Shown here one piece after another: positions 29,457-41,613 of a stretch of 64,000 bases of DNA. Made by a program: the position numbers and the translations under genes. The notes under the pieces are model-generated. The model ran no database searches. It saw only the letters and a program-made list of their open reading frames with translations, and had not been told where the DNA came from. Source of the stretch: Microlunatus elymi (GTDB lineage: Bacteria; Actinomycetota; Actinomycetes; Propionibacteriales; Propionibacteriaceae); NCBI RefSeq assembly GCF_007362775.1, contig NZ_CP041692.1, forward strand, positions 2,790,001 to 2,854,000, read 5' to 3'. The number at the start of each line of letters is the position of its first letter. The first letter of the stretch is position 1.

Positions 29457-30886
29457 GGAAGTGCCCCTTCTCTCGGCCAAGGTCGACTCGCCTCGGCCGG
29501 TCGATGTCGTTCGTACCATGCTGCAGCGGCGAGCACGCCGCGATCGTCGAATCGCCGTCCGGCCAGCTGGACTCCGATCGGCCGGCCGGCGGGTCTGCCG
29601 GCATCGGAATCGTCGGTGTAGCCGCAGTTGATGCTCAGCGCAGGTTGCCCGGACATGTTGTACGGCATGCAGAAGCCGATGTGCGCCATCGCCCGCTCCA
29701 CGTCGTTGCTAGGCATCGGCCAGTCGACCGGGTAGGTCGGTTCCGGCGCGACCGGCGAGAGCACAAGATCGAATGGTGACGTTGCAGCCAGGCAGGCGCG
29801 GGCGATGGCCAGCTGCGCGTCGCTGCCGGCGACGGCCTGGGGTCCGGTCACCGCGGCACCGGCCCGGCACCAGTCGGCGATGAAGTCGAACAGCAGTCCC
29901 CGGCGGTCGGGCGCGACGGCCAGGTAGTCGTTCCAGTGTCCGACCCGCCAGAACCGGTCGACCGCGTCCAGCAGGGCCTGGGTCAGGAACGGCGGCAGCA
30001 GCTCGACGGCGGCACCGGCGTCCGCAAAGGTCTCGGCCGCCCGGCGGACGGCCGAGAGGACCGGCCCGGCCACCGGCGTACCGGCACCGGCCTCGAGCAA
30101 CAGACCGATCCGTGATCCTGCCGGATCGAAACCCAGGTCGCCCCAGTCGACAGCCGCGGCCGGCAGGCTGTACGGGTCACGGTCGTCGGGCCCGTACAGG
30201 CAGCACATGGCGGCGGCGAGGTCGGCGACGGTGCGGGTCAGCGGGCCGATCGTCCGGCCGGTGTACGGGGGATCGACCGGGATCCGGCCGAAGCTCGGTT
30301 TGAACCCCAGACATCCGTTCCAGGTGGCGGGAAGCCTGATCGAGCCGCCGATGTCACTGCCCAGGTTGATCGGCGCGTAACCGGCCGTGGTGGCGGCCCC
30401 GGCGCCGGAACTCGAACCGCCGGGATTCCAATCCGGATGCCACGGATTGTGCGTGGTCGGATGCAGTGACGAGACGCCGCTGGACAACATCCCCCAATCC
30501 GGCATCGTGGTGCGCCCCAGCAGCACAGCTCCGGCCGCGAACAGGCGGTCGGCGACCGGCGCGTTGCGGGCGGCCGGCCGGTCCGGGCTGGCCGCCGTAC
30601 CCCAGCGGGTCGCCTCGCCGGCAAGATCGACGTTTTCCTTGATCGTCACGGTCACCCCGTCCAGCGGGCCGAGCGCAGCTCCGGCCCGCCAACGCCGCTC
30701 GCTGTCGGCGGCAGCGGCCAGCGCCCGGTCCGGATAGACGGCTGCGAGCGCATGCAGCCGGGGTTCGGCCGCGGAGATCCGGTCCAGCGCCGCCCTGGTC
30801 ACCTCGACCGGCGAAATCGAACCCTCGGCGTAGCCCCGGTGTTGATCCGTCGCGGTGAGGTCGGCGAGACCGTCGGCAACGACCAC
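29453..30886 (-). CDS. Amidase (amidase-signature family)
   Basis: The 477-residue enzyme hydrolyses amide bonds with a Ser-cisSer-Lys triad: Lys in VTIKENVDLAG, cis-Ser in NPGGSSSGAGAATTAG and nucleophile in GSDIGGSIRLPATWNG. It heads the transporter operon, with GGAGGATTT before its GTG and a stop overlapping the binding-protein start. Context (uptake of a peptide-like compound, a second amide hydrolase at the operon end) suggests amide-bearing substrates. A GatA role is unlikely as gatB/gatC are absent. Confidence 0.9.
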   Translation of the reverse strand: MVVADGLADLTATDQHRGYAEGSISPVEVTRAALDRISAAEPRLHALAAVYPDRALAAAADSERRWRAGAALGPLDGVTVTIKENVDLAGEATRWGTAASPDRPAARNAPVADRLFAAGAVLLGRTTMPDWGMLSSGVSSLHPTTHNPWHPDWNPGGSSSGAGAATTAGYAPINLGSDIGGSIRLPATWNGCLGFKPSFGRIPVDPPYTGRTIGPLTRTVADLAAAMCCLYGPDDRDPYSLPAAAVDWGDLGFDPAGSRIGLLLEAGAGTPVAGPVLSAVRRAAETFADAGAAVELLPPFLTQALLDAVDRFWRVGHWNDYLAVAPDRRGLLFDFIADWCRAGAAVTGPQAVAGSDAQLAIARACLAATSPFDLVLSPVAPEPTYPVDWPMPSNDVERAMAHIGFCMPYNMSGQPALSINCGYTDDSDAGRPAGRPIGVQLAGRRFDDRGVLAAAAWYERHRPAEASRPWPREGALP

Positions 30887-31224
30887 AAATCCTCCCGCAG
30901 AGTCCGGTGGAACACGTACGCATCAGTGCCGGAATGAACCTACTGGGATGCCGCGCAGGGCGTCGGACGGCGCGCGCATGGTGGACGCGATCGCGGCGTC
31001 CGACCGGCTCCGCTGGGCGCCGGCTCGATGGATCCACGGCTGTGAGCGCATTCCACCGAGGTCGCGATCTAACGACTGGACGTGCTAACGTCACGCCAGT
31101 TCTGAGAAGAACTCGGTAAATATCACATGAGCGTGCTGCGGGCGTCGCCACAAGCCGGACCCGCAGCAGCGAGTCGACGTCGTCCGTGACGGGAACCGGC
31201 CGGGCGGCGAGGAGGACGGCAAGG
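30887..31224. promoter_or_regulatory. Divergent control region of the amidase-transporter and tetritol operons
   Basis: No gene is supported in these 338 bp. The operon-proximal half (31060-31135) is distinctly richer in A/T. The dyad AGTTCT-GAGA-AGAACT at 31098-31113 is the best operator candidate, followed by GGTAAATATCAC, a possible -10 region. A longer inverted pair GTCGGACG/CGTCCGAC (30962-31004) lies nearer the amidase. The DeoR regulator at the end of the right-hand operon is the obvious candidate to bind here. Confidence 0.45.
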
Positions 31225-32256
31225 ATGCGCGCAGTAGTTTTCTCTTCACCCCACGAGCTCACCTTGACCGAGGTCGACGATCCGCGTCCCGGACCGGGCG
31301 AGGTCGTGATCAAGACCGCGGCAGTCGGCATCTGCGGTACCGACACCCACGTCTTCGACGGTGAGTTCGAGGGCACCGTCTATCCGCTGATCCCCGGCCA
31401 CGAGGCGACCGGCACCGTGGTCGAACTCGGCGAGGACGTCGACGATCTCGCGGTGGGAGATCCGGTGGCGATCAACCCCAGCACCACCTGCGGCCGCTGC
31501 GAGTTCTGCCTGAACGGCCGCGCCAATCTCTGCCGGGCCTGGAACGGGCTGGGCGTGGTGGCCAGTGACGGAGCATCCGCCGAGTACGCCCGGGTGCCGC
31601 GCGCGAACGTGTTCAAACTGCGCGCTGAAACCGACCTCCACCAGGCCGCACTGATCGAACCGCTGGCATGCGCGATCCGCGGCTACGACCTGCTGCCCCG
31701 CAGGATGGGCGAGCACTACCTGGTCTACGGCGCCGGCACCATGGGCCTGCTGATGGCCCAACTGGCACCGCGCGCCGGAGCGGCCAGTGTCACCGTGGTC
31801 GACCTGAACGAGAACCGGCTGCAGGCCGCCCGCGAGGTCGGTGTCCAGAACACCCTCACCTCCGCTGACGAGGCCGACGCCGACCGCGACCAGTGGGATG
31901 TGGTGATCGACTGCACCGGCGTGATCGCCGCGATCGAGGATGCGCTGCCGCGGGTCAAGGCCGGCGGCACCTTCCAGCACTTCGGCGTCGCCCCGGCCGA
32001 GGCGACTGCGCAGTATTCCCCCTTCCGGGTCTACCGGGACGAGATCAACATCGTCGGCACGATGGCCGTGTTGAACAGCTTCGGCCGCGCGGTGGAGATG
32101 TTCGAGGCCGGCGCGATCCAGCCGGCGCCGATGATCTCGCACGCGTTCGCGCTGGACGACTACGCGCAGGCGCTGGAGCAGTTCCGGGCCGGCACCGGTC
32201 GCAAGCTGCAGATCCGGCCGCACGCCTCCGAGTCCGTGGTGCTGTTGCCCGCCTGA
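31225..32256 (+). CDS. Zinc-dependent polyol dehydrogenase, probable erythritol/threitol dehydrogenase
   Basis: This 343-residue medium-chain dehydrogenase carries the catalytic zinc site (GICGTDTHVF, PGHEATGTVVELG), the structural zinc lobe CGRCEFCLNGRANLC and the NAD fold VYGAGTMGLLMAQLA. It resembles sorbitol/threitol-type dehydrogenases. Being first in an operon with an erythrulose-type kinase and two isomerases, it is inferred to oxidise a tetritol to erythrulose (EltD-like). ATG at 31225 follows GGAGGACGGCAAGG; an in-frame GTG at 31186 would add 13 residues. Confidence 0.85.
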   Translation: MRAVVFSSPHELTLTEVDDPRPGPGEVVIKTAAVGICGTDTHVFDGEFEGTVYPLIPGHEATGTVVELGEDVDDLAVGDPVAINPSTTCGRCEFCLNGRANLCRAWNGLGVVASDGASAEYARVPRANVFKLRAETDLHQAALIEPLACAIRGYDLLPRRMGEHYLVYGAGTMGLLMAQLAPRAGAASVTVVDLNENRLQAAREVGVQNTLTSADEADADRDQWDVVIDCTGVIAAIEDALPRVKAGGTFQHFGVAPAEATAQYSPFRVYRDEINIVGTMAVLNSFGRAVEMFEAGAIQPAPMISHAFALDDYAQALEQFRAGTGRKLQIRPHASESVVLLPA

Positions 32257-32300
32257 TCCTGCCGCCGGCCCGATTCCGAACCTCCAACAGGAGAACAGCT

Positions 32301-32978
32301 ATGTCGCAATCAGTGCAGATCGATGCCGCACCGGCCCGGCCGCGGCACAAACCGAAGCGGCACACCCACCGCTGGGTGATCACCGGACTCGTTGTGGTCC
32401 TGGTGATCGCCATGGGCTTCGGCACCACCGTGGTGACGCCGCTGGAGGCCAGCAAGGCGAGCAGCAGTGGCGTTGATCCGGCCACGTTCGCTCGGGACAA
32501 CTACGACGAGATCGCCGGCAAGATCACCGACCGAGCCAAACCGCTCGGCGAGGTCGCGACCGCGATCGACCAAGATCAGAACGCCGCCGCGAAGAAGTAC
32601 GCGGTCGGCACCGGCCCGTCGGCCACGTACTCGGTGAAGTTCACCGGGACCGCCGGCAAGGCCGATCCGGAGACCGGCTATCTGCCGGTGACGGTGGACG
32701 GCATGCCGGACGGGGTGGGGGTGTCGGTGCAGACCGGCCCGGCCCTGCTCGGTACGGCGTTGCGCGATGCCACCGGGGAGGTCACCTTCCCGATGTTCAC
32801 CAACCAGCTGGACTATCAGTCCGCCGGCGACGAGCTGAACAAGCAGCTGAAGGCCAAGACCCTCAAGGGTCTGGACGCCGCCGGTCTGGCCGGCAAGCAG
32901 GTCAGCGTGGTCGGCGCGTTCCAGCCGATCAACCCGGACGTGCTGTTGGTGATGCCCGTCTCGATCAAGGAGGCCTGA
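32301..32978 (+). CDS. DUF2291 family membrane-anchored protein
   Basis: The 225-residue protein has a basic N-terminus, one span (WVITGLVVVLVIAMGFGTTVV) and an extracytoplasmic domain with YDEIAGKITDRAKPL and VGAFQPINPDVLLVMPVSI, a pattern I associate with DUF2291. Such genes are found beside RbsABC-type importers for polyols or sugars. Function is unknown; an accessory role with the binding protein is plausible. RBS AGGAGA. Its stop overlaps the ATPase start by one base (TGATG). Confidence 0.75.
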   Translation: MSQSVQIDAAPARPRHKPKRHTHRWVITGLVVVLVIAMGFGTTVVTPLEASKASSSGVDPATFARDNYDEIAGKITDRAKPLGEVATAIDQDQNAAAKKYAVGTGPSATYSVKFTGTAGKADPETGYLPVTVDGMPDGVGVSVQTGPALLGTALRDATGEVTFPMFTNQLDYQSAGDELNKQLKAKTLKGLDAAGLAGKQVSVVGAFQPINPDVLLVMPVSIKEA

Positions 32979-34579
32979 TGCCTCCGGTGGCAACCGCTGA
33001 AGCCGAGGTGGGAACCGAGGTGGTGCTGACCGCGCGCGGCGTCCGGAAGAACTATGGCGGCACCCAGGCGCTGAAGGGTGTCGACTTCGAGGTGCACCGC
33101 GGCAAGGTGACCACGCTGTTCGGCGAGAACGGCGCCGGCAAGTCCACCCTGATGCGGATCCTGTCCGGCATCGAACAGCCGACCGTCGGCTCGATCGAGT
33201 TGGACGGCGAGCAGGTCATGTTCGAGTCGGCCAAAGACGCGGCGGCTCGGGGCATCGTGATCATCCACCAGGAGCTCAGCCTGGCCCCGAACCTCAACGT
33301 CCGCGACAACATCTTCATCGGTCGGGAGATCACCCGGGCCGGTCGGGTGGATTACCGGGCCGAGGAGAAGATCGTCGCCGAGCTGATGGCCCGGTTGCAG
33401 GCCGACATCGATCCGCGGACGCTGGTCTCCGATCTACGGCTCGGCCAGCAGCAGATGGTGGAGATCGCGCGGGCGCTGGCCCAGGACGCGCGGATCCTGA
33501 TCATGGACGAGCCGACCTCGGCGCTCAGCGCATCCGAGGTCGAGGTCCTGTTCAAGGTGATCGACGACCTGACCACCGACGGGGTCTCGATCGTCTACAT
33601 CTCCCATCATCTGGAGGAGGCACTCGAGGTCTCCGACTACGCGGTGGTGTTCCGCGACGGCAGCCTGGTCGCGACCGAGCGGGCCGCCGACATCGACCTG
33701 CCGTGGATCGTCGACAAGATGGTCGGCAGCGGATTCGATCTTGGTACGCCGCCGGATCCGAAGCGGTTCGGTGAGCCGGTGCTGGAGTTGACCAAGATCA
33801 GCGTCGCCGATCGCTCCAACCCGGATCGGCTCGCTGTCGACGACATCGACCTGACCGTACGAGCCGGCGAGATCGTCTGCATCTACGGGCTGATGGGCGC
33901 CGGCCGGACCGAGCTGCTGGAGGCCGTCGCCGGCCGGGATCCGTTGCTGGCAGGCGCGATCAGGGTCAACGGCGCCGACGTCGGCGGCCTCGGCATTGCC
34001 GAGCGGATCGACGCCGGGCTGGCGCTGGTGCCCGAAGATCGACAACGCGACGGCATCGTGCAGACCCTGTCGGTCGGCCGCAATCTGTCGTTGGCCAGCC
34101 TGGCCGAGATCGTCCGCGGCAAGATCCTGTCCCGGGACAAGGAACACCGGCGCAACGCGACGTCGATCAAGGACGTACACATCAAGACCGCCGGCCCGCA
34201 GGCCGCGATCGGCTCGCTGTCCGGCGGCAATCAGCAGAAGGTCGTGATCGGCAAGATCCTGCAGACCGATCCGGCGATCATCCTGCTCGACGAACCCAGC
34301 CGCGGCATCGACATCGGTGCCAAGACCGAGGTGTTCGCGCTGCTCGCGAGGCTGGCCGCCGAAGGTCTGGCCGTGGTCTACACCACCTCCGAGGTGGTGG
34401 AGTGCCTCGGCGTCGCCAACCGCGTGCTGGTGATGAATCGGGGCAGGTTCGCCGCCGAGTTCAGCCACGACCAGGCAACCAAGGAAGACATCATGGCCGC
34501 TTCCGGTGAATCGGCCGAGACCGAATCGACCCACACCGAATCGACCCACACCGAATCGACAAGGACGAAACAATCATGA
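32978..34579 (+). CDS. Sugar/polyol ABC transporter ATP-binding protein (RbsA type)
   Basis: Two tandem ATPase halves in 533 residues: the first has GENGAGKSTLMR and ILIMDEPTSALS; the second has the degenerate P-loop LMGAGRTELLE, LSGGNQQKVVIGKIL and IILLDEPSRGIDIGAK, as in RbsA/MglA. It drives uptake with the permease that follows. The C-terminal tail (THTES repeats) is encoded by a 15-bp tandem repeat (34520-34560) and looks dispensable. Stop overlaps the permease ATG. Confidence 0.93.
   Translation: MPPVATAEAEVGTEVVLTARGVRKNYGGTQALKGVDFEVHRGKVTTLFGENGAGKSTLMRILSGIEQPTVGSIELDGEQVMFESAKDAAARGIVIIHQELSLAPNLNVRDNIFIGREITRAGRVDYRAEEKIVAELMARLQADIDPRTLVSDLRLGQQQMVEIARALAQDARILIMDEPTSALSASEVEVLFKVIDDLTTDGVSIVYISHHLEEALEVSDYAVVFRDGSLVATERAADIDLPWIVDKMVGSGFDLGTPPDPKRFGEPVLELTKISVADRSNPDRLAVDDIDLTVRAGEIVCIYGLMGAGRTELLEAVAGRDPLLAGAIRVNGADVGGLGIAERIDAGLALVPEDRQRDGIVQTLSVGRNLSLASLAEIVRGKILSRDKEHRRNATSIKDVHIKTAGPQAAIGSLSGGNQQKVVIGKILQTDPAIILLDEPSRGIDIGAKTEVFALLARLAAEGLAVVYTTSEVVECLGVANRVLVMNRGRFAAEFSHDQATKEDIMAASGESAETESTHTESTHTESTRTKQS
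34520..34560. repeat. 15-bp in-frame tandem repeat at the 3' end of the ATPase gene
   Basis: Two full and one partial unit of ACCGAATCGACCCAC give the tail ESTHTESTHTEST. Repeat length is a multiple of three. Confidence 0.85.
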
Positions 34580-35748
34580 CCAGCACAGATGCTGCCATCA
34601 GCAAGCCACGCAGCGGCTTCGGTGAGGGCGTGACCATCGGCCGGCTGCTGCTTGACGGCAGGGCGTTCATCGCCCTGCTGGTGATCATCGTGATCTTCTC
34701 CCTGCTGTCGCCGAACTTCTTCACCTTCGACAACCTGATCGTGATGACCCGGCACGTCGCGGTGAACGCGCTGCTGGCGATCGGCATGTTGATGGTGATC
34801 TTGAACGCGGGCATCGACCTGTCGGTCGGTTCCACCGTCGCACTGACCGGTGTGGTGGCCGGATATCTCTTGCAGGGCGTGAATCTGCCGTTCAGCCAGC
34901 TGATCGCCTACCCGGCGGTCTGGGTGGTGGTGATCTTGTCGATCGCCATCGGAGCACTGGTCGGGCTGGTCAACGGTCTGCTGGTGTCGCGGTTCAAGGT
35001 GGCGCCGTTCGTGGCCACCCTGGGCATGATGTACATCGCCCGGGGGATCGCGTTGTTGATCACCAACGGCCAGACCTTCCCACGCCTGCAGGGATCCGAC
35101 GAACTCGGCAACACCGGCTTCAACTGGGTCGGCTTCAACTCGATCGGGTTCCTGCCGATCGGCATCATCGCCATGATCATCGTCGCCGCGGCGGCCAGCT
35201 TCGTCCTGAACAAAACCCCGTTCGGTCGTTGGCTGTACGCGTCCGGTGGCAACGAGCGGGCAGCGGAGTTGTCCGGTGTGCCGGTGCGTTCGGTGAAGAC
35301 CGGCGTGTACGTGATCTCCGGCGCGCTGGCCGGGATGGCCGGTTTGATCCTGACCTCGGAGCTCACCAGCGCGACCCCGCAGGCCGGTGACTCGTACGAG
35401 TTGACCGCGATCGCGGCCGTGGTGATCGGTGGCGCCTCGCTGATGGGCGGCAAGGGAACCGTACGCGGCACCCTGATCGGCGCCTTCGTGATCGGCTTCC
35501 TGTCCGACGGTCTGGTGATCATCGGCGTCTCCGAGTACTGGCAGATGGTGTTCAAGGGTGCAGTGATCGTGCTCGCGGTGATGTTGAACGCGGTCGACTA
35601 CCGCAGCCGGCGGCCGAAGAACGCCAAGGACGAGGCCGGTTCTTCGACCAGCCAGGCACTGGCCGCGGCCGGGCTGCGGCCGCCGCCGCTCAGCGACACC
35701 GAAGCAGCACAGAAATTGTCCGACGACCGCACCGGCGGAAAGGAATGA
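34576..35748 (+). CDS. Sugar/polyol ABC transporter permease (RbsC type)
   Basis: The 390-residue permease has ~9-10 spans and family motifs VAVNALLAIGMLMVILNAGIDLSVGS, ATLGMMYIARG, SGGNERAAELSGVPVRSVK and GGASLMGGKGTVRGTLIGAF. A soluble Ser/Ala-rich C-terminal tail of ~45 residues follows the last span. Start ATG overlaps the previous stop (ATGA). Confidence 0.93.
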   Translation: MTSTDAAISKPRSGFGEGVTIGRLLLDGRAFIALLVIIVIFSLLSPNFFTFDNLIVMTRHVAVNALLAIGMLMVILNAGIDLSVGSTVALTGVVAGYLLQGVNLPFSQLIAYPAVWVVVILSIAIGALVGLVNGLLVSRFKVAPFVATLGMMYIARGIALLITNGQTFPRLQGSDELGNTGFNWVGFNSIGFLPIGIIAMIIVAAAASFVLNKTPFGRWLYASGGNERAAELSGVPVRSVKTGVYVISGALAGMAGLILTSELTSATPQAGDSYELTAIAAVVIGGASLMGGKGTVRGTLIGAFVIGFLSDGLVIIGVSEYWQMVFKGAVIVLAVMLNAVDYRSRRPKNAKDEAGSSTSQALAAAGLRPPPLSDTEAAQKLSDDRTGGKE

Positions 35749-35750
35749 TC

Positions 35751-36773
35751 ATGGGTCTCAACAAGGTCAACACCAAGATCATCCGCGGTCGGCGGTCCCG
35801 GATCGGCGCGGTGGCGATCATTGCCGTAGTGGCGAGTTTGATCTTGTCCGGCTGCGGCTCCGGTTCCGAGGTGGCCGGCAAGAAGTCGGCCCAGGAGTTG
35901 GAGGGCGCGTTGATCTCGGTGATCACCTCGCCACTGGACAACCCGTACTGGCGGACCGAGGCCGACACCATCACCGCCGAGGGTAAGCGGATGGGATACC
36001 AGGTCAACGTGGTCTCCCACGACGCGGATCCGAAGAAGGAAAGCGATCTGGTGGACACCGCGATCACCAAGAAGTCGGCGGCGATCGTGCTCGACCCGGC
36101 CGGTGCGGACTCGTCCATCGGCAATGCCAGCAAGGCCAACGCGGCCGGCATCCCGGTGTTCCTGGTCAACGCCGAGATCAACGAACAGGGCATCGCCAAG
36201 TCCCAGCTGGTGTCGAACAACGCCCAGGGCGCGGTGCTCGGCGCGCAGCAGTTCGCCGAGGCGATGGGCCGCAAGGGCGAGTATGTCGAGCTCGTCGGTC
36301 TGTCCACCGACACCAACGCCGCGGTCCGGTCGAACGGATTCGCCAGTGTCCTGGGTCAGTTCCCGGATCTGAAGAAGGTCCAGTCCGAGACGGCCGACTG
36401 GGACCAGAAGAAGGGCTTCGACAAGATGCAGACGATGTTGCAGGCCCATCCCGACCTGAAGGGCGTCATCGCGGGCAATGATCAGATGGCGCTCGGCGCG
36501 ATCTCGGCGCTGAAGCAGGCCGGCAAACTGGACCAGGTCGTGGTCGGTGGCTTCGACGGCAACCAGGACGCGGTGAACGCGGTCAAGAACGGTGAGATGG
36601 CCTACACCGTGGTCCAGCCGGTGGTCGACTTCTCCACCGACGTGGTGCACCAGATCGACAGCTACCTGCGAACCGGCAAGACTGGTGTCGACGACGAGAA
36701 GCAATTGTTCGACTGTTCACTCGTGACCCGGGCCAACGCCGGGGAGTGGCAGGACTTCCAGCACAAGAAATGA
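35751..36773 (+). CDS. Sugar/polyol ABC transporter substrate-binding lipoprotein
   Basis: This 340-residue periplasmic-binding-protein-1-like receptor has a lipobox SLILSGCGSG (Cys ~32) and the RbsB-type layout (VITSPLDNPYWRTEADTI, IPVFLVNAEIN, VIAGNDQMALGAISAL, VVVGGFDGNQDAVNAV). It captures the ligand for the ATPase and permease upstream. ATG at 35751 has GGAAAGGA at proper spacing; ATG at 35745 overlaps the previous stop but sits too close to that site. Ligand inferred as a tetritol from the enzymes downstream. Confidence 0.92.
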   Translation: MGLNKVNTKIIRGRRSRIGAVAIIAVVASLILSGCGSGSEVAGKKSAQELEGALISVITSPLDNPYWRTEADTITAEGKRMGYQVNVVSHDADPKKESDLVDTAITKKSAAIVLDPAGADSSIGNASKANAAGIPVFLVNAEINEQGIAKSQLVSNNAQGAVLGAQQFAEAMGRKGEYVELVGLSTDTNAAVRSNGFASVLGQFPDLKKVQSETADWDQKKGFDKMQTMLQAHPDLKGVIAGNDQMALGAISALKQAGKLDQVVVGGFDGNQDAVNAVKNGEMAYTVVQPVVDFSTDVVHQIDSYLRTGKTGVDDEKQLFDCSLVTRANAGEWQDFQHKK

Positions 36774-36789
36774 CGGGATAGGAACACCG

Positions 36790-38493
36790 ATGTCCTTCAT
36801 CAGCAACGATCCCGCCCGGTTCAGCGAGCAGGCGACCGCGGGATTCGTGGCCGCTCACTCCGACCTGATCCGAGCGGTCCCCGGCGGGGTGGCGCGACGC
36901 ACCGCCACCCCGGCCGGCCAACCCGCGATCGTGATCGGCGGCGGGTCGGGCCACTATCCGGCCTTCGGCGGCCTGGTCGGCCCAGGACTGGCTCACGGCG
37001 CGGCGGTCGGCAACGTCTTCGCCTCACCCTCTGGTCAGCAGGTGTACGACGTGGCCAAGGCGGTGGAGAACGGCGGCGGCGTGCTGCTCACCTGCGGCAA
37101 CTACGCCGGCGACGTACTCAACTTCAACCAGGCCAAGGAACGGCTGATCGCCGAGGGCATCCGGGCCGAGACCCTGTTCGTCACCGACGACATCTCCTCG
37201 GCCAAGCCGGAGGAGTCGGCCAAACGGCGCGGCATCGCCGGCGGACTGGCCGTCTACAAGATCGCCGCCGCGGCGGCCGAGGCGGGCAAGGACCTCGATC
37301 AGGTCGTCGAGCTGGCCAACCGGGTCAACGACAACATTCGTACGCTGGGGGTCGCGTTCACCGGTTGCACCCTGCCCGGTGCGCACGAGCCGCTGTTCAC
37401 CGTGCCGGAGGGGCGGATGGGTGTCGGCGTCGGCATCCACGGCGAGCCCGGCATCGACGAGACCGACCTGCCGCGCTCCCAGGAGTTGGCCGCGAGGCTG
37501 TGGGATGCGGTGATCGCCGAACGTCCCGAGGGTGCCGGCGATCGTGCGGTGATCTTCGTCAACGGGCTCGGTGCGGTGAAGAACGAAGAGCTCTTCATCC
37601 TCTACAACGACATCCGGGCGCTGGCGGACCGGGACGGCATCGAGCCGGTCGCGGTCGAGGTCGGCGAGCTGGTGACCAGCTTCGAGATGGCCGGCGCCTC
37701 GCTCAGCCTGTGGTGGGTGGACGACGAGATCGAGCAACTGTGGGCGGCTCCGGCCTACACCTCCGGCTACCGCAAGGGCGCCGTGCAGGCCGATCAGGGT
37801 GAGGTGCTGGAGGACGTCAGCGAATCCGCCGAGACCGAGGTCGGCGAGGCGAGCGACGCGTCCCGGCAGGCGGCCCGGCGGATCGGCGGGCTGTTGAAGA
37901 CGGTGCACGAGACCATCCACAGTCACGCCGACGAGTTGGGCAAGCTGGACGCGATCGCCGGCGACGGCGATCACGGCATCGGGATGGAACGCGGCGCCCG
38001 GGCCGCGGTCGAGGCGGCCGAGGCGATCCTGGACCGGGAACCGGGTGCGCAGACCCTGCTGGTGCAGGCCGGACAGGCCTGGGCCGCACAGGCGGGCGGC
38101 ACTTCCGGCGTGCTCTGGGGTGCGGTGCTGGAGACGATCGGCCGGGCCCTCGGTGACGAGGACAAGCCCGACGCCGGCCGGGTTGCCGACGGTGTCGCGC
38201 AGGCCGACGAACAGGTACGCAAGATCGGTGGCGCTCAGGCCGGGGACAAGACCATGGTGGACGCTCTGATCCCGTTCGCCCAGGCGCTGACCGACGGCGT
38301 ACAGGCGGGTAGGACTCTGGCCGAGGCGTGGACCGAGGCGGCCGCCCTGGCGACCGAGCAGGCCGAGGCCACCGCCGACCTGATGCCGAAGATGGGCCGG
38401 GCCCGTCCGCACGCCGAGAAGAGTCTCGGCACCCCCGATCCGGGCGCGATCTCGTTCGCCCTGATCGCCACCGCAGTAGGCAGGAAACTCTGA
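36790..38493 (+). CDS. Single-chain dihydroxyacetone/erythrulose kinase (DhaK-DhaL fusion)
   Basis: The 567-residue ATP-type kinase has an N-terminal DhaK domain (GGGSGHYPAFGGLVG; substrate-linking His in GVGIHGEPG) and a C-terminal DhaL nucleotide domain (AIAGDGDHGIGMERGA, QAGGTSGVLWGA, MPKMGRARPHAEKSLG). Related kinases phosphorylate dihydroxyacetone or erythrulose. Flanking dehydrogenase and both isomerases favour L-erythrulose (LerK-like). The stop codon is inside the left end of the hairpin at 38492-38541. Substrate is inference. Confidence 0.9.
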   Translation: MSFISNDPARFSEQATAGFVAAHSDLIRAVPGGVARRTATPAGQPAIVIGGGSGHYPAFGGLVGPGLAHGAAVGNVFASPSGQQVYDVAKAVENGGGVLLTCGNYAGDVLNFNQAKERLIAEGIRAETLFVTDDISSAKPEESAKRRGIAGGLAVYKIAAAAAEAGKDLDQVVELANRVNDNIRTLGVAFTGCTLPGAHEPLFTVPEGRMGVGVGIHGEPGIDETDLPRSQELAARLWDAVIAERPEGAGDRAVIFVNGLGAVKNEELFILYNDIRALADRDGIEPVAVEVGELVTSFEMAGASLSLWWVDDEIEQLWAAPAYTSGYRKGAVQADQGEVLEDVSESAETEVGEASDASRQAARRIGGLLKTVHETIHSHADELGKLDAIAGDGDHGIGMERGARAAVEAAEAILDREPGAQTLLVQAGQAWAAQAGGTSGVLWGAVLETIGRALGDEDKPDAGRVADGVAQADEQVRKIGGAQAGDKTMVDALIPFAQALTDGVQAGRTLAEAWTEAAALATEQAEATADLMPKMGRARPHAEKSLGTPDPGAISFALIATAVGRKL

Positions 38494-38541
38494 CTTGTCA
38501 GCGTGAGGAAGCGCTATAGCGCCTGGTGAGGCTGACAAGTC
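38492..38541. repeat. Inverted repeat with CTATAG centre after the kinase gene
   Basis: Arms GACTTGTCAGC and GCTGACAAGTC (11 exact bases) enclose a loop whose middle GCGCTATAGCGC is itself a 12-bp palindrome. It overlaps the kinase stop codon and ends 21 bp before the next gene. It is a sibling of the element at 14017-14057. Confidence 0.75.
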
Positions 38542-38562
38542 GGGAAGAGAGAGGGAAAGATC

Positions 38563-39060
38563 ATGAGTGGATGGAAGATCGTCGTCGGTTCCGACGACGC
38601 GGGTTTCGACTACAAGGAAGCCCTGAAGAAGGATCTGGAGAATTCCGACCTGGTCGAGTCCGTGGTCGACGCGGGCGTGGACGCGACCGGCCACACCCCG
38701 TACCCGACGATCGCGATCGCGGCGGCGGAGATGATCGCCCGGGGCGAGGCGGACCGGGCGCTGCTGGTCTGCGGCACCGGGCTCGGGGTGGCGATCTCGG
38801 CCAACAAGGTGCCCGGGATCCGCGCGGTCACCGCCCACGACACCTACTCGGTGGAGCGGTCGGTGCTGTCCAACAACGCGCAGGTGCTGTGCTTCGGCCA
38901 GCGGGTGGTCGGCCTGGAGCTGGCCCGCAAGCTGGCCAAGGAGTGGCTGACTCTGCACTTCGACGAGTCCAGCGCATCGGCGGAGAAGGTCGCGGTGATC
39001 AGCGAGTACGAGAGCAAGGTCGACGCCAGCGCCGATCAGGCTTCCGGCTCGGCCTGCTGA
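38563..39060 (+). CDS. RpiB/LacA-type sugar-phosphate isomerase (probable erythrulose 4-phosphate isomerase)
   Basis: The 165-residue enzyme has the RpiB fold: [16 protein letters not shown], the catalytic Cys in [22 protein letters not shown] and the phosphate-binding [18 protein letters not shown]. Ribose-5-phosphate isomerase RpiB is the general alternative. Position after an erythrulose-type kinase suggests D-erythrulose 4-phosphate to D-erythrose 4-phosphate (DerI/EryI-like). ATG follows GAGGGAAAG. Confidence 0.88.
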
Positions 39061-39066
39061 GCCGCG

Positions 39067-39819
39067 ATGTCCAGATTCCTCGGCGTCAGTCTGAAGATGT
39101 ACCTGGACCATCGCAGCACGCTGCGGTGGATCGCCGATGTCGCCGCCATCGCCGACGAACAGTCGGCGGTGGCCGACGGCACGGTGCAACTGGCCGTGCT
39201 GCCGAGCTTCGTCTCGCTGCAGGCTGCGGCGCGGATCACCGCCGGTACGCGGCTGGAGCTGGGTGCGCAGGATCTGAGCTGGGCCGACAGCGGTGCCTTC
39301 ACCGGCGAGGTCAGCGGACGTGATCTTGCCGCGCTGGGCTGCCGGTACGTCGAGGTCGGGCACGCCGAACGGCGTCGATTGTTCGGCGAGGACGCCGTGA
39401 TCATCGCCGGCAAACTCGCGGCCGCGCAGCGGAACGGGTTGACGCCGATTCTCTGTGTGGGCGAGGAAGAACGGGTGGACGAGGAAGAGGCCGCCGACTT
39501 CTGCCTCGATCAGATCGCCGGTGCGCTGGGCGACCTGGACGGTGAGCTGCCGGAGTTGATCATCGCGTACGAGCCGGTCTGGGCGATCGGCGCCGACCGG
39601 CCGGCCGGGGCAGATCACGTCCGGGCGGTCTGCCGCCGTCTGCGGGCCGAGCTCGCCGATGATCATCGGCCGCAGCAGGTCCGGGTGATCTACGGCGGCA
39701 GTGCCGGCCCCGGACTGCTGGCCCAGTTGGGCGATGCGGTCGACGGGCTCTTCCTGGGCCGGTTCGCGCACGACCCGCAACAGCTGCGCCAGGTGATCAT
39801 CGAAGCCTCGGCGAGTTGA
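39067..39819 (+). CDS. Triosephosphate isomerase-like enzyme (probable L-erythrulose 1-phosphate isomerase)
   Basis: The 250-residue TIM barrel keeps the catalytic Lys (GVSLKMYL), His (YVEVGHAERRRLF), Glu (IIAYEPVWAIGAD) and phosphate loop (VIYGGSAGPG). The loop after YEPVWAIG differs from canonical glycolytic TIM, which has GTG next, and the gene is in a polyol operon. This fits the LerI/EryH group that converts L-erythrulose 1-phosphate to D-erythrulose 4-phosphate. It starts six bases after the RpiB-like stop. Confidence 0.88.
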   Translation: MSRFLGVSLKMYLDHRSTLRWIADVAAIADEQSAVADGTVQLAVLPSFVSLQAAARITAGTRLELGAQDLSWADSGAFTGEVSGRDLAALGCRYVEVGHAERRRLFGEDAVIIAGKLAAAQRNGLTPILCVGEEERVDEEEAADFCLDQIAGALGDLDGELPELIIAYEPVWAIGADRPAGADHVRAVCRRLRAELADDHRPQQVRVIYGGSAGPGLLAQLGDAVDGLFLGRFAHDPQQLRQVIIEASAS

Positions 39820-39821
39820 TC

Positions 39822-40676
39822 ATGATGTGTGCCGACTCGGACGCCGGGCGGGCAGAGCCCCGGCACGTCGTCACCCCGTCCGAGCCGGCGAGTCGGCAGG
39901 ACCGTCGCGCGGCTCGGCAGAACGCGATCGCCGATGCGGTGATCGCCAACGGGTCGGTCCGAATCGAGGAGCTGGCCGAACAGTTCAAGATCAGCTTGAT
40001 GACGGCCCATCGTGATCTTGACGAGCTGCAGGCCCGCGGGCTGTTGCGGAAGTCGCGTGGGGTGGCGACGGCGCAGGCCACCAGCCTGGTCGAATCCAGC
40101 GTGTTCTACCGGGGGGCCCAGCACCTGGACATCAAACGGGCGCTGGCTGCGGCGGCGATGGCCTACGTCGACAGCGGTCAGTCGGTGTTGCTGGACGACT
40201 CCACGACCGTGCAGCAGGTCATCGGGTTGCTGCCCGAGGTGGCGCCGCTGACCGTGATCACCAATTCCCTGATCGCGATCAACCAGGTGACCGGGATCGA
40301 CGAGATCTCGGTGATCGGTCTCGGCGGCGAGTACCACCCGGGATTCGGCTCCTTCATGGGCCGGATGACGAACGAGGCGATCGGCCGGCTGCGCAGCGAC
40401 GTGGTACTGATGTCCGCGGCGGCGATCATCGACCGCACCGTCTACTTCCAGGCGTCCGAGACCGTCGACACCAAGCGGGCGATGCTCGACGCCTCGGCGG
40501 TCCGCGTCCTGCTGGCCGACCACACCAAATTCAGCGCCCGAGCCCTGCACGCCCTGGCCGACCTGGACGAATTCGACCACGTGATCACCGACGACCGCAC
40601 CCCGGCCGACACCATCGACCGGCTCCGCGAGTCCGGCATCGACCTGATCGTCGTCCCGACGCCCGCACAATCCTGA
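39822..40676 (+). CDS. DeoR/GlpR family transcriptional regulator of the tetritol operon
   Basis: The 284-residue regulator has a winged helix (NGSVRIEELAEQFKISLMTAHRDLDELQARGLL) and the sugar-phosphate sensor domain with DDSTTVQQVIGLLP, VITNSLIAINQV and KRAMLDASAVRVLLADHTKF. It ends the operon. Starts: ATG at 39822 or 39825; a TTG at 39816 overlaps the preceding stop. DeoR proteins generally bind a phosphorylated intermediate, here perhaps an erythrulose phosphate, and repress their own operon. Confidence 0.9.
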   Translation: MMCADSDAGRAEPRHVVTPSEPASRQDRRAARQNAIADAVIANGSVRIEELAEQFKISLMTAHRDLDELQARGLLRKSRGVATAQATSLVESSVFYRGAQHLDIKRALAAAAMAYVDSGQSVLLDDSTTVQQVIGLLPEVAPLTVITNSLIAINQVTGIDEISVIGLGGEYHPGFGSFMGRMTNEAIGRLRSDVVLMSAAAIIDRTVYFQASETVDTKRAMLDASAVRVLLADHTKFSARALHALADLDEFDHVITDDRTPADTIDRLRESGIDLIVVPTPAQS

Positions 40677-40704
40677 CGGCTGTCTCCGACCCAGGGTCCT
40701 GAGC

Positions 40705-40870
40705 CACAGCCGCGCGCAAGATCGACCCCCGCCCCCGAAACCGCCGGCACCAGCACAGCCGCGCGCAAGATCGACCCCTGCACCCGAAATTTCGCGCGCG
40801 GCGGTCGGTTTGGGGTGCGGCAGTGTCCGGCAGCCGACAGCCGCGCGCGAACCCGACTCCCGCACCCGAA
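40705..40870. repeat. Cluster of three related intergenic repeats
   Basis: Three direct copies occur: ACAGCCGCGCGCAAGATCGA... ending CCCCGAAA at 40706-40740, a close copy ending CACCCGAAATTTCG at 40755-40794, and a diverged copy from 40837 to 40870. The same words flank and compose the sodA terminator at 1261-1320, read in the opposite direction. No gene is present in this gap, which also ends the tetritol operon. Confidence 0.7.
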
Positions 40871-40925
40871 GCCGCTCGAGACCTGCGGGCACCGTACTGA
40901 AGCTTTCACCTTCATCCTTGCGGAT

Positions 40926-40944
40926 GTGAAGCTTATGGCTTCAC
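40926..40944 (+). promoter_or_regulatory. GTGAAGC dyad upstream of satD
   Basis: GTGAAGC-TTATG-GCTTCAC is a perfect 7-base dyad ending nine bases before the GTG start. More copies of the half-site surround it (TGAAGC at 40899, TTCACCTTCA after it, AGTGAAGG at the start codon, CAGCTTCAG within the gene), suggesting cooperative binding. SatD-like proteins are proposed DNA-binding, so autoregulation is possible. Confidence 0.55.
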
Positions 40945-40953
40945 ACTGGGGGA

Positions 40954-41613
40954 GTGAAGGAATCAGCTTCAGACCCTGCTGAATACCGGGCGGCGGTGAT
41001 CGGGGATCTGGTCGGATCGCGTACGGCCTCCGACCGGCGTGGCGTCCATCGGCAACTGACCCGGGTGCTCGACGCGGTGGCAACCGAACTGCCGCCGCTG
41101 GATCCGGCCGTCGTCGTGGCCGGCGACGAACTCCAGTTGAGCTATCCGCGGCTCGGCGACGCGCTGCAGGCGGCCTTCCTGATCCGGCTCCGGCTGGCGC
41201 CCGAGATCGACGTCCGGTTCGGCATCGGCTGGGGCACGGTCGAGGTGCTCGATTCACGGTCCGGGGCGCAGGACGGACCGGCCTGGTGGCAGGCCCGATC
41301 GGCGATCGAGACGGTGGAAGCTCGGGCCCAGCACCCCGGGACCCGGAACGCCCGGTTCTGCTATCGGGCCGGCCCGGACGGGGAGGGGCCCGACGAGCCG
41401 GCGGTCGAAGCAGCGCTGATCTGTCGGGACCAGCTGATGGGATCGCTGAGTACGCGATCGATGCGGATCCTGGGAGGTTTGGTGGCCGGACGCAGCAAGA
41501 CCGAAATTGCCCGTACGGAGCAGATCTCGACCTCCGCGGTGTCCCAGCGGGTGCAGCGCGACGGGCTGGACGTGATCGTGGCGGCGAGCGCGATGTTGCG
41601 GGAGGTCGGATGA
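40954..41613 (+). CDS. SatD family protein
   Basis: The 219-residue protein opens with the SatD signature AVIGDLVGSRTASDRRGVHRQL and continues through VVVAGDELQLSYPRLGDALQAAFLIRL. The C-terminal end holds a helix-turn-helix (GGLVAGRSKTEIARTEQISTSAVSQRVQRDG). SatD was named in a streptococcal acid-tolerance operon; its biochemical role is unsettled. The start GTG lies within a half-site repeat with no room for a good ribosome site, so the transcript may be nearly leaderless. Its stop overlaps the next ATG. Confidence 0.78.
   Translation: MKESASDPAEYRAAVIGDLVGSRTASDRRGVHRQLTRVLDAVATELPPLDPAVVVAGDELQLSYPRLGDALQAAFLIRLRLAPEIDVRFGIGWGTVEVLDSRSGAQDGPAWWQARSAIETVEARAQHPGTRNARFCYRAGPDGEGPDEPAVEAALICRDQLMGSLSTRSMRILGGLVAGRSKTEIARTEQISTSAVSQRVQRDGLDVIVAASAMLREVG

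What the first reader, a model, noticed from the sequence alone, without database searches (positions are those of the whole stretch)
31225..40676. Complete candidate operon for import and catabolism of a C4 polyol
Nine consecutive plus-strand genes form one system: Zn dehydrogenase, DUF2291, RbsA/RbsC/RbsB-type importer, single-chain DhaK-DhaL kinase, RpiB-like isomerase, TIM-like isomerase, DeoR regulator. Tetritol utilisation in Mycobacterium smegmatis is known to run through dehydrogenase, erythrulose kinase, TIM-like and RpiB-like isomerases to erythrose 4-phosphate (EltD/LerK/LerI/DerI types). All enzyme types needed are here, and active residues are intact. The substrate (erythritol vs threitol) is inference.
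Basis: partly seen in the sequence, partly recalled or inferred. Interest (0 to 1): 0.7.

Follow-up and report, generated by a model that had tools for sequence, protein, structure and literature searches.

The report
Erythritol import and breakdown operon
Nine adjacent genes of an actinobacterium most likely let it take up the sugar alcohol erythritol and turn it into a normal sugar phosphate; the pathway type is already known, but this importer-plus-enzyme combination is a tidy, testable example.

Summary
In detail: nine + strand genes (31225-40676) encode a Zn-dehydrogenase, DUF2291 protein, RbsA/C/B-type importer, DhaK-DhaL kinase, RpiB-like and TIM-like isomerases and DeoR regulator. The same nine stand in the same order in 6 of 80 related loci and on an Arthrobacter plasmid. 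The C4-polyol reading is supported and narrows to erythritol: ATPase, permease and binding protein are 64/60/60% identical to the importer of a Rhizobium leguminosarum locus laid out like eryEFG/eryABCD, against 49/52/48% for an R. etli apiose-type locus. Both isomerases are second copies in the genome. The enzyme set matches the Yarrowia erythritol cluster. Likely route: erythritol, erythrulose, erythrulose phosphate, erythrose 4-phosphate. Syntenic same-genus genomes lack just the dehydrogenase+importer block. DUF2291, an OB-fold relative of TM0957, accompanies this ATPase type in 15 of 15 loci. Caveats: binding-protein clade support 91/95, apiose grouping not rejected (p-AU 0.129), M. smegmatis reference sequences unavailable, no biochemistry. 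New member of a known kind.

The parts
31225..32256 (+). Zn-dependent polyol dehydrogenase, 343 aa (candidate erythritol dehydrogenase)
   Evidence: PF08240/PF00107; closest database protein 91%, the other listed hits 74-83% (best 120 of 5965); 78% to the plasmid operon copy
32301..32978 (+). DUF2291 protein, one N-terminal hydrophobic helix plus OB-fold domain predicted outside the membrane
32978..34579 (+). Importer ATPase (EryE/RbsA type)
   Evidence: two PF00005 domains; 64% to the ATPase of the R. leguminosarum ery-type locus
34576..35748 (+). Importer permease (EryF/RbsC type)
   Evidence: PF02653; 60% to the R. leguminosarum locus
35745..36773 (+). Substrate-binding protein (EryG/RbsB type); lipobox-like LSGC near the N-terminus by eye
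   Evidence: PF13407; 60% to the R. leguminosarum ery-type locus, 48% to the R. etli apiose-type locus; tree and pocket residues
36790..38493 (+). Single-chain DhaK-DhaL erythrulose kinase candidate
   Evidence: PF02733+PF02734; only match in the genome at E 0.001; tree
38563..39060 (+). RpiB-like isomerase (candidate D-erythrulose-4-phosphate isomerase)
   Evidence: PF02502; second copy in the genome, other copy only 30% identical
39067..39819 (+). TIM-like isomerase (candidate L-erythrulose-1-phosphate isomerase)
   Evidence: PF00121; second copy in the genome, other copy 40% identical; altered SLKMY, GHAERR and LGRFAH motifs
39816..40676 (+). DeoR-family regulator (TTG start as listed; an ATG lies 6 bases on)
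   Evidence: PF08220+PF00455; 53% to the DeoR gene directly after the binding-protein gene in R. leguminosarum
31098..31130 (.). Candidate operator stretch upstream of the dehydrogenase: palindrome AGTTCTGAGAAGAACT and half-site TCACATGA
   Evidence: seen in sequence; palindrome also from the inverted-repeat scan; not conserved across the operons, unproven

Best explanation
An erythritol utilisation operon. An EryEFG-type ABC importer (binding protein, permease, ATPase), probably assisted by the membrane-anchored DUF2291 OB-fold protein, brings in erythritol. [quoted passage not shown] The DeoR protein probably represses the operon until a pathway intermediate is present. Shown here: gene content, intact motifs, conservation of the set, similarity of the importer to the EryEFG type. 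Inferred: every reaction, the substrate, the L-erythrulose branch and the regulation.
For: (1) Importer: all three subunits and the DeoR regulator are closer to the R. leguminosarum ery-type locus than to the R. etli apiose-type one; in the former the importer run begins with DUF2291 and lies divergent from eryABCD-type genes. Growth of R. leguminosarum on erythritol depends on eryEFG (PMC3599248, passages and section 10 seen); that L082 is eryEFG is my inference from layout. (2) The binding protein has the letters of the L082 protein at 15 of 17 recalled ribose-contact positions, with Asp-Arg of the ribose/apiose proteins replaced by Asn-Ala and Phe-Phe by Tyr-Trp. (3) Dehydrogenase, erythrulose kinase, L-erythrulose-1P isomerase (TIM type, related to EryH) and D-erythrulose-4P isomerase (RpiB type, related to EryI) make up the Yarrowia erythritol cluster (PMC9835291, PMC5992420, passages). 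(4) TIM-like and RpiB-like are second copies beside another TIM and RpiB elsewhere in the genome. (5) 67 of 80 kinase loci hold both isomerase types. (6) Best profile hits of the TIM-like family in the PDB are 3s6d and 11ef, the latter named L-erythrulose-1-phosphate isomerase.
Against: Best single-sequence PDB hits of the binding protein are 5ibq/4ry0, named ribose transporter proteins (recalled to have been solved with apiose/ribose), and public records name its relatives D-ribose binding proteins. The window protein sits on a long branch, and p-AU 0.129 does not exclude a grouping with the apiose type; in L019, which has the whole nine-gene operon, the binding protein falls outside the EryG clade. 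The Tyr-Trp/Asn-Ala pocket is also in the other same-genus operon type L110-L112 whose substrate is unknown. As a single sequence the TIM-like protein scores higher against ordinary TIMs (153 bits) than against 11ef (126 bits). The RpiB-like protein fails the curated rhizobial DerI model (151 of 240 bits) and passes one named ribose-5-phosphate isomerase. Dehydrogenases 60-65% identical occur in ten other same-genus genomes, five of which (G005, G006, G009, G010, G020) have no such binding protein at E 1e-60. In M. smegmatis, EltD+LerK take erythritol to D-erythrulose 4-phosphate, which would not need the TIM-like step (PMC10733421, passages).
Confidence: 0.7

Rival explanations
1. The operon serves L-threitol (or both L-threitol and erythritol): L-threitol is oxidised to L-erythrulose, then the same kinase and two isomerases follow.
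For: In M. smegmatis EltD/LerK act on both tetritols and it is the L-threitol branch that gives L-erythrulose 1-phosphate, the substrate of LerI (PMC10733421, passages); the TIM-like gene is present here.
Against: The importer is closest to the EryEFG type, tied genetically to erythritol.
Confidence: 0.16
2. The operon serves D-threitol/D-erythrulose by a DerK-type kinase and the RpiB-like isomerase; the TIM-like enzyme is accessory.
For: Some relatives of the kinase are named D-erythrulose (4-)kinase by data sources and the window kinase lies in the same 43-row group, support 97.
Against: The TIM-like step would be idle, yet 67 of 80 kinase loci hold both isomerase types; the binding protein is far from 4rsm (98 bits against 284 for the best hit), recalled as the M. 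smegmatis D-threitol protein; recalled: the D-threitol dehydrogenase of M. smegmatis is a short-chain enzyme, not a Zn enzyme.
Confidence: 0.07
3. The operon serves apiose or ribose: the importer is of the kind found in the R. etli apiose-type locus.
For: The R. etli p42f locus also combines DUF2291, an Rbs-type importer, TIM, RpiB and DhaK/DhaL genes; best PDB hits are recalled to be that type; p-AU 0.129 does not exclude it.
Against: Binding protein, ATPase and permease identities are lower (48/49/52% against 60/64/60%); the Asp-Arg and Phe-Phe pocket letters are absent; oiaX, the Gfo/Idh oxidoreductase and the four-carbon acid sugar kinase of that locus are absent from the nine genes.
Confidence: 0.05
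4. A dihydroxyacetone/glycerol operon in which TIM and DhaK-DhaL act in their textbook roles.
For: Families DhaK-DhaL and TIM.
Against: Glycerone-kinase model not met (354 of 575 bits); a separate TIM exists; the TIM phosphate-loop and GHSERR motifs are changed; no glycerol facilitator family among the nine.
Confidence: 0.02

Closest known systems
Tetritol pathway of Mycolicibacterium smegmatis (EltD, LerK/DerK, LerI, DerI)
   Same: Polyol dehydrogenase, erythrulose kinase, L-erythrulose-1P and D-erythrulose-4P isomerases (PMC10733421 and PMC12780249, passages); that the kinases are DhaK type and the isomerases TIM-like and RpiB-like is recalled.
   Different: Here one kinase of this type is in the genome and the importer is EryEFG-like. 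Sequence orthology not tested; EltD is given as 362 or 368 aa (PMC12542623, passages), the window enzyme has 343 aa.
Yarrowia lipolytica erythritol utilisation cluster (EYD1, EYK1, EYL2, EYL1)
   Same: The same four enzyme steps clustered, erythritol to erythrose 4-phosphate through L-erythrulose 1-phosphate (PMC9835291, passages). The PDB hits closest to the two isomerases, 3s6d (profile) and 3qd5/3sdw, are recalled to be fungal.
   Different: Eukaryote; no ABC importer or DUF2291 is mentioned in the passages seen; different regulator (EUF1).
EryEFG erythritol importer of Rhizobium leguminosarum
   Same: DUF2291-ATPase-permease-binding protein-DeoR order; 40/64/60/60/53% identity.
   Different: There it stands beside a kinase-first eryABC-type set; here beside a dehydrogenase-first set. 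TIM and RpiB there are a different lineage (37% and 43%).
R. etli p42f apiose-type locus (recalled source of the 4ry0/5ibq binding protein)
   Same: Same importer family with DUF2291, plus TIM, RpiB, DhaK and DhaL genes.
   Different: Lower identity, different pocket letters, oiaX and other enzymes absent here.

Membership tests
Oxidation-first tetritol pathway (M. smegmatis / Yarrowia type) | Polyol dehydrogenase, DhaK-type kinase, TIM-like and RpiB-like isomerase genes together | tested here: met
   set with importer and regulator conserved in 7 of 80 loci
Oxidation-first tetritol pathway (M. smegmatis / Yarrowia type) | Isomerases distinct from the genome's other TIM and RpiB | tested here: met
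   two TIM and two RpiB genes in the genome; other copies 40% and 30% identical; separate in the TIM tree (FastTree, long branches flagged)
Oxidation-first tetritol pathway (M. smegmatis / Yarrowia type) | Sequence clustering with characterised EltD, LerK/DerK, LerI, DerI | not testable with these tools
   M. smegmatis sequences not found in the named collections searched; only database names of relatives seen
Oxidation-first tetritol pathway (M. smegmatis / Yarrowia type) | Curated D-erythrulose-4-phosphate isomerase model (rhizobial type, NF051858) | tested here: not met
   151.2 bits, cut-off 240; by its name the model is for the rhizobial lineage
Oxidation-first tetritol pathway (M. smegmatis / Yarrowia type) | Enzyme activities on tetritols and tetrulose phosphates | not testable with these tools
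   needs biochemistry
EryEFG erythritol importer | Binding protein in one clade with EryG, apart from ribose/apiose proteins | tested here: inconclusive
   16-row clade 91/95, below the star threshold; alternative with apiose type p-AU 0.129
EryEFG erythritol importer | DUF2291 gene directly before the ATPase gene | tested here: met
   same in L082 and in 15 of 15 loci with an ATPase 55% or more identical
Kinase-first ery pathway (EryA, EryB, EryC) | FGGY erythritol kinase, erythritol-phosphate dehydrogenase, EryC | tested here: not met
   none among the nine genes; such families present in L082
Apiose-type locus | oiaX, Gfo/Idh oxidoreductase, four-carbon acid sugar kinase beside the importer | tested here: not met
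   none among the nine genes
Ribose importer (RbsB) | Asp89-Arg90 and Phe15-Phe16 ribose contacts (positions recalled) | tested here: not met
   Asn-Ala and Tyr-Trp in the window protein

The most novel reading that the evidence does not exclude
DUF2291 is an unrecognised fourth subunit of one branch of RbsABC-type importers: a membrane-anchored OB-fold protein outside the membrane that travels with the ATPase gene from Thermotoga to rhizobia and actinobacteria and takes part in substrate delivery or transporter assembly, so that EryEFG is really a four-part importer.
Probability: 0.5. Interest if true: 0.5.

Novelty: new member of a known kind. Interest (0 to 1): 0.33.

Why it matters
It gives a compact, likely complete erythritol import and catabolism unit from a Microlunatus-type actinobacterium, usable for strain engineering. 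It shows two known halves (a rhizobial-type importer and a mycobacterial/yeast-type oxidation-first route) combined in one operon. Syntenic same-genus genomes that lack exactly the import/oxidation half make the substrate prediction directly testable. It also ties a domain of unknown function to one importer type.

Tried and rejected
Shared operator: an inverted-repeat scan of 21 upstream regions found no palindrome common to all; perfect TCACACGACTCGTGTGA in L105 and TCACATGAAG/CTTCATGTGA in L019 came from the scan, CACAYGA half-sites in L106, L002 and the window were seen by eye. Promoter scan: no sigma-70-like site in 30850-41000; 3 terminator-like hits against 4.1 in shuffles. LerK versus DerK: the kinase tree does not settle it, because the window kinase is on a long stem with three genus mates (and two MAG kinases, support 89) inside the large group. 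TIM-like names: among the 120 listed homologues every name given is a triosephosphate isomerase name and many have none, so names give no help. Papers: apiose+apulose returned none; DUF2291 none; erythritol+Microlunatus one off-topic paper, listing only. Any hint that this combination is not described rests only on searches in an open-access library. Huang 2015 (M. smegmatis) and Barbier 2014 were not read; what I say of them is from citing papers or recall.

Rows dropped: the first binding-protein tree held a wrongly long row (L082_26329). For some searches only hits above 40% identity and 60% coverage were kept, one of two identical rows (L103) was dropped in the tree, and E. coli RbsB was added. 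The TIM tree dropped the window's own duplicate loci L001 and L089 and hits under 60% coverage. The kinase tree used a hand-picked subset, 54 rows. Protein lists show the best 120 of thousands. Thresholds are mine, and presence there means in the same locus (up to about 21 kb; many loci are cut by contig ends).

Full report
What is there. The nine genes are real, intact and packed as one operon: dehydrogenase, DUF2291, ATPase, permease, binding protein, DhaK-DhaL kinase, RpiB-like, TIM-like, DeoR. Upstream on the other strand lie an amidase and an oligopeptide-type ABC transporter; downstream a SatD-type protein and another ABC transporter with a family 1 binding protein. These flanks are conserved in relatives that lack part of the operon, so I do not count them in.

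Is it a unit beyond this genome? A search of named bacterial and archaeal genomes with the kinase kept the best 80 loci of 556 confirmed; more exist. All nine genes occur in 7 of 80 by my thresholds, in the same order in 6 (L003, L005, L018, L019, L037, L066: Arthrobacter x2, Allobranchiibius, Glycomyces, Microbacterium x2); in Frigoribacterium (L040) the two isomerase genes stand apart on the other strand. An Arthrobacter plasmid typed as conjugative carries the same nine in order. Kinase plus both isomerase types occur in 67 of 80 loci, kinase plus TIM-like in 74, kinase plus RpiB-like in 72.

Importer. In PLSDB plasmids the 40 best-listed relatives of the binding protein are 59-64% identical and come from Arthrobacter, Shinella, Paracoccus, Rhizobium, Roseibium and kin; records name them D-ribose binding proteins. 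In R. leguminosarum (L082) this gene ends a run DUF2291-ATPase-permease-binding protein, followed by a DeoR gene and divergent from an FGGY kinase, a glycerol-3-phosphate-type dehydrogenase, a TIM-barrel protein and a sugar-binding regulator, with DeoR, TIM and RpiB genes beyond. I read this as the eryEFG/eryABCD arrangement of PMC3599248; the hypothetical gene which that paper puts at the start of the eryEFG transcript would then be DUF2291 (abstract, passages and section 10). The paper states that growth of R. leguminosarum on erythritol depends on eryEFG. Identities window to L082: binding protein 60%, ATPase 64%, permease 60%, DUF2291 40%, DeoR 53% (the DeoR beside the TIM and RpiB genes there only 36%). 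To the R. etli p42f locus with oiaX (L084): binding protein 48%, ATPase 49%, permease 52%, DUF2291 38%.

Tree and pocket. In a careful tree of 24 rows the window protein falls with 15 others including L082 (91/95, not starred). Holding it with L110-L112, L045 and L019 costs 13.3 log units (p-AU 0.017); holding it with the apiose type L084 and L060 costs 13.1 but is not rejected (p-AU 0.129). L019, although it has the whole nine-gene operon, has a binding protein outside the 16-row clade. At 17 positions recalled as ribose contacts the window matches L082 at 15, L084 at 11 and E. coli RbsB at 9; the telling changes are Asp-Arg to Asn-Ala and Phe-Phe to Tyr-Trp. These letters are in all 22 rows other than L084, L060 and RbsB, including L110-L112, so they mark a broad group, not erythritol alone.

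Enzymes. The genome holds a second TIM (L088) and a second RpiB (L090), but one DhaK-DhaL match. The window TIM-like protein forms a group with other kinase-linked TIM-like proteins, apart from L088 and from the rhizobial TpiB type (FastTree, 94 rows, long branches flagged). It keeps the catalytic Lys, His and Glu but has SLKMY for the NWKMN of L088, GHAERR for GHSERR and LGRFAH for VGGASL; the GR of the last motif is shared with rhizobial TpiB. A profile of 17 such proteins finds 3s6d first (227 bits) and then 11ef, deposited as L-erythrulose-1-phosphate isomerase (200 bits), ahead of ordinary TIMs (195 and below); as a single sequence, ordinary TIMs score higher (153) than 11ef (126). The RpiB-like protein is closest to 3qd5/3sdw (206 bits) and further from the other RpiB structures (113 and below); it passes the model named actinobacterial ribose-5-phosphate isomerase and fails the rhizobial DerI model. 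The Yarrowia cluster has dehydrogenase, erythrulose kinase, L-erythrulose-1P isomerase (gene YALI0F01584, related to EryH) and D-erythrulose-4P isomerase (YALI0F01628, related to EryI) (PMC9835291 and PMC5992420, passages). The kinase fails the glycerone-kinase equivalog model and passes the general dihydroxyacetone-kinase-family model; close relatives of the Prauserella member are called D-erythrulose kinase, D-erythrulose 4-kinase or erythrulose kinase by some sources and dihydroxyacetone kinase by most.

D or L? In M. [quoted passage not shown] In Yarrowia it does. Because a TIM-like gene is in the same locus as the kinase in 74 of 80 cases, I favour the L-erythrulose branch, but this is inference.

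Natural comparison. The genome of L002 has no good relative of the binding protein (best E 1e-5); G007, G012 and G013 have none at E 1e-60, and their best dehydrogenase matches are 32-40% identical. The stretch just before the kinase start (GATAGGAA in the window, TAGGAA in all) is similar at the junction. Since the nine-gene order recurs in other families, loss of a five-gene block looks simpler than exact insertion, but this was not tested on a species tree.

Verdict. A well-supported tetritol operon, most likely for erythritol, a new member of a known kind; the importer-route combination and the DUF2291 link are the parts worth following.

Noticed in passing
window 40708-40778: A 22-base sequence AGCCGCGCGCAAGATCGACCCC occurs twice just after the operon and 18 times genome-wide within 2 mismatches (these two included), against 0 for the reversed control: a small dispersed repeat.
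   Followed up: partly
L110, L111, L112 (same-genus genomes): A second operon type in the genus: dehydrogenase (28-29%), TIM of the rhizobial-side group, DUF2291, importer, kinase (49-52%), RpiB (55-62%); substrate unknown.
   Followed up: partly
L083 (Arthrobacter plasmid NZ_CP084551.1): The nine-gene operon lies on a plasmid typed as conjugative, between an IS30 transposase and a site-specific integrase gene, so the whole unit may be mobile.
   Followed up: no
L086 (Erwinia plasmid NZ_CP046581.1): This enterobacterial kinase/TIM-like cluster carries an MFS transporter, a sugar phosphate isomerase/epimerase and a phosphogluconate-dehydrogenase-like gene instead of the ABC importer: possibly another C4 pathway.
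   Followed up: no
L058, L068 (Prauserella): Two different DhaK-DhaL kinases (49% and 56% to the window's) in one stretch with RpiB-like and TIM-like genes, as if for two erythrulose forms.
   Followed up: partly
L105, L106, L002 upstream of dhaKL; L019 upstream of dehydrogenase; window 31123-31130: CACAYGA-type half-sites or palindromes as candidate DeoR operators; perfect palindromes in L105 and L019 by scan, the others by eye.
   Followed up: partly
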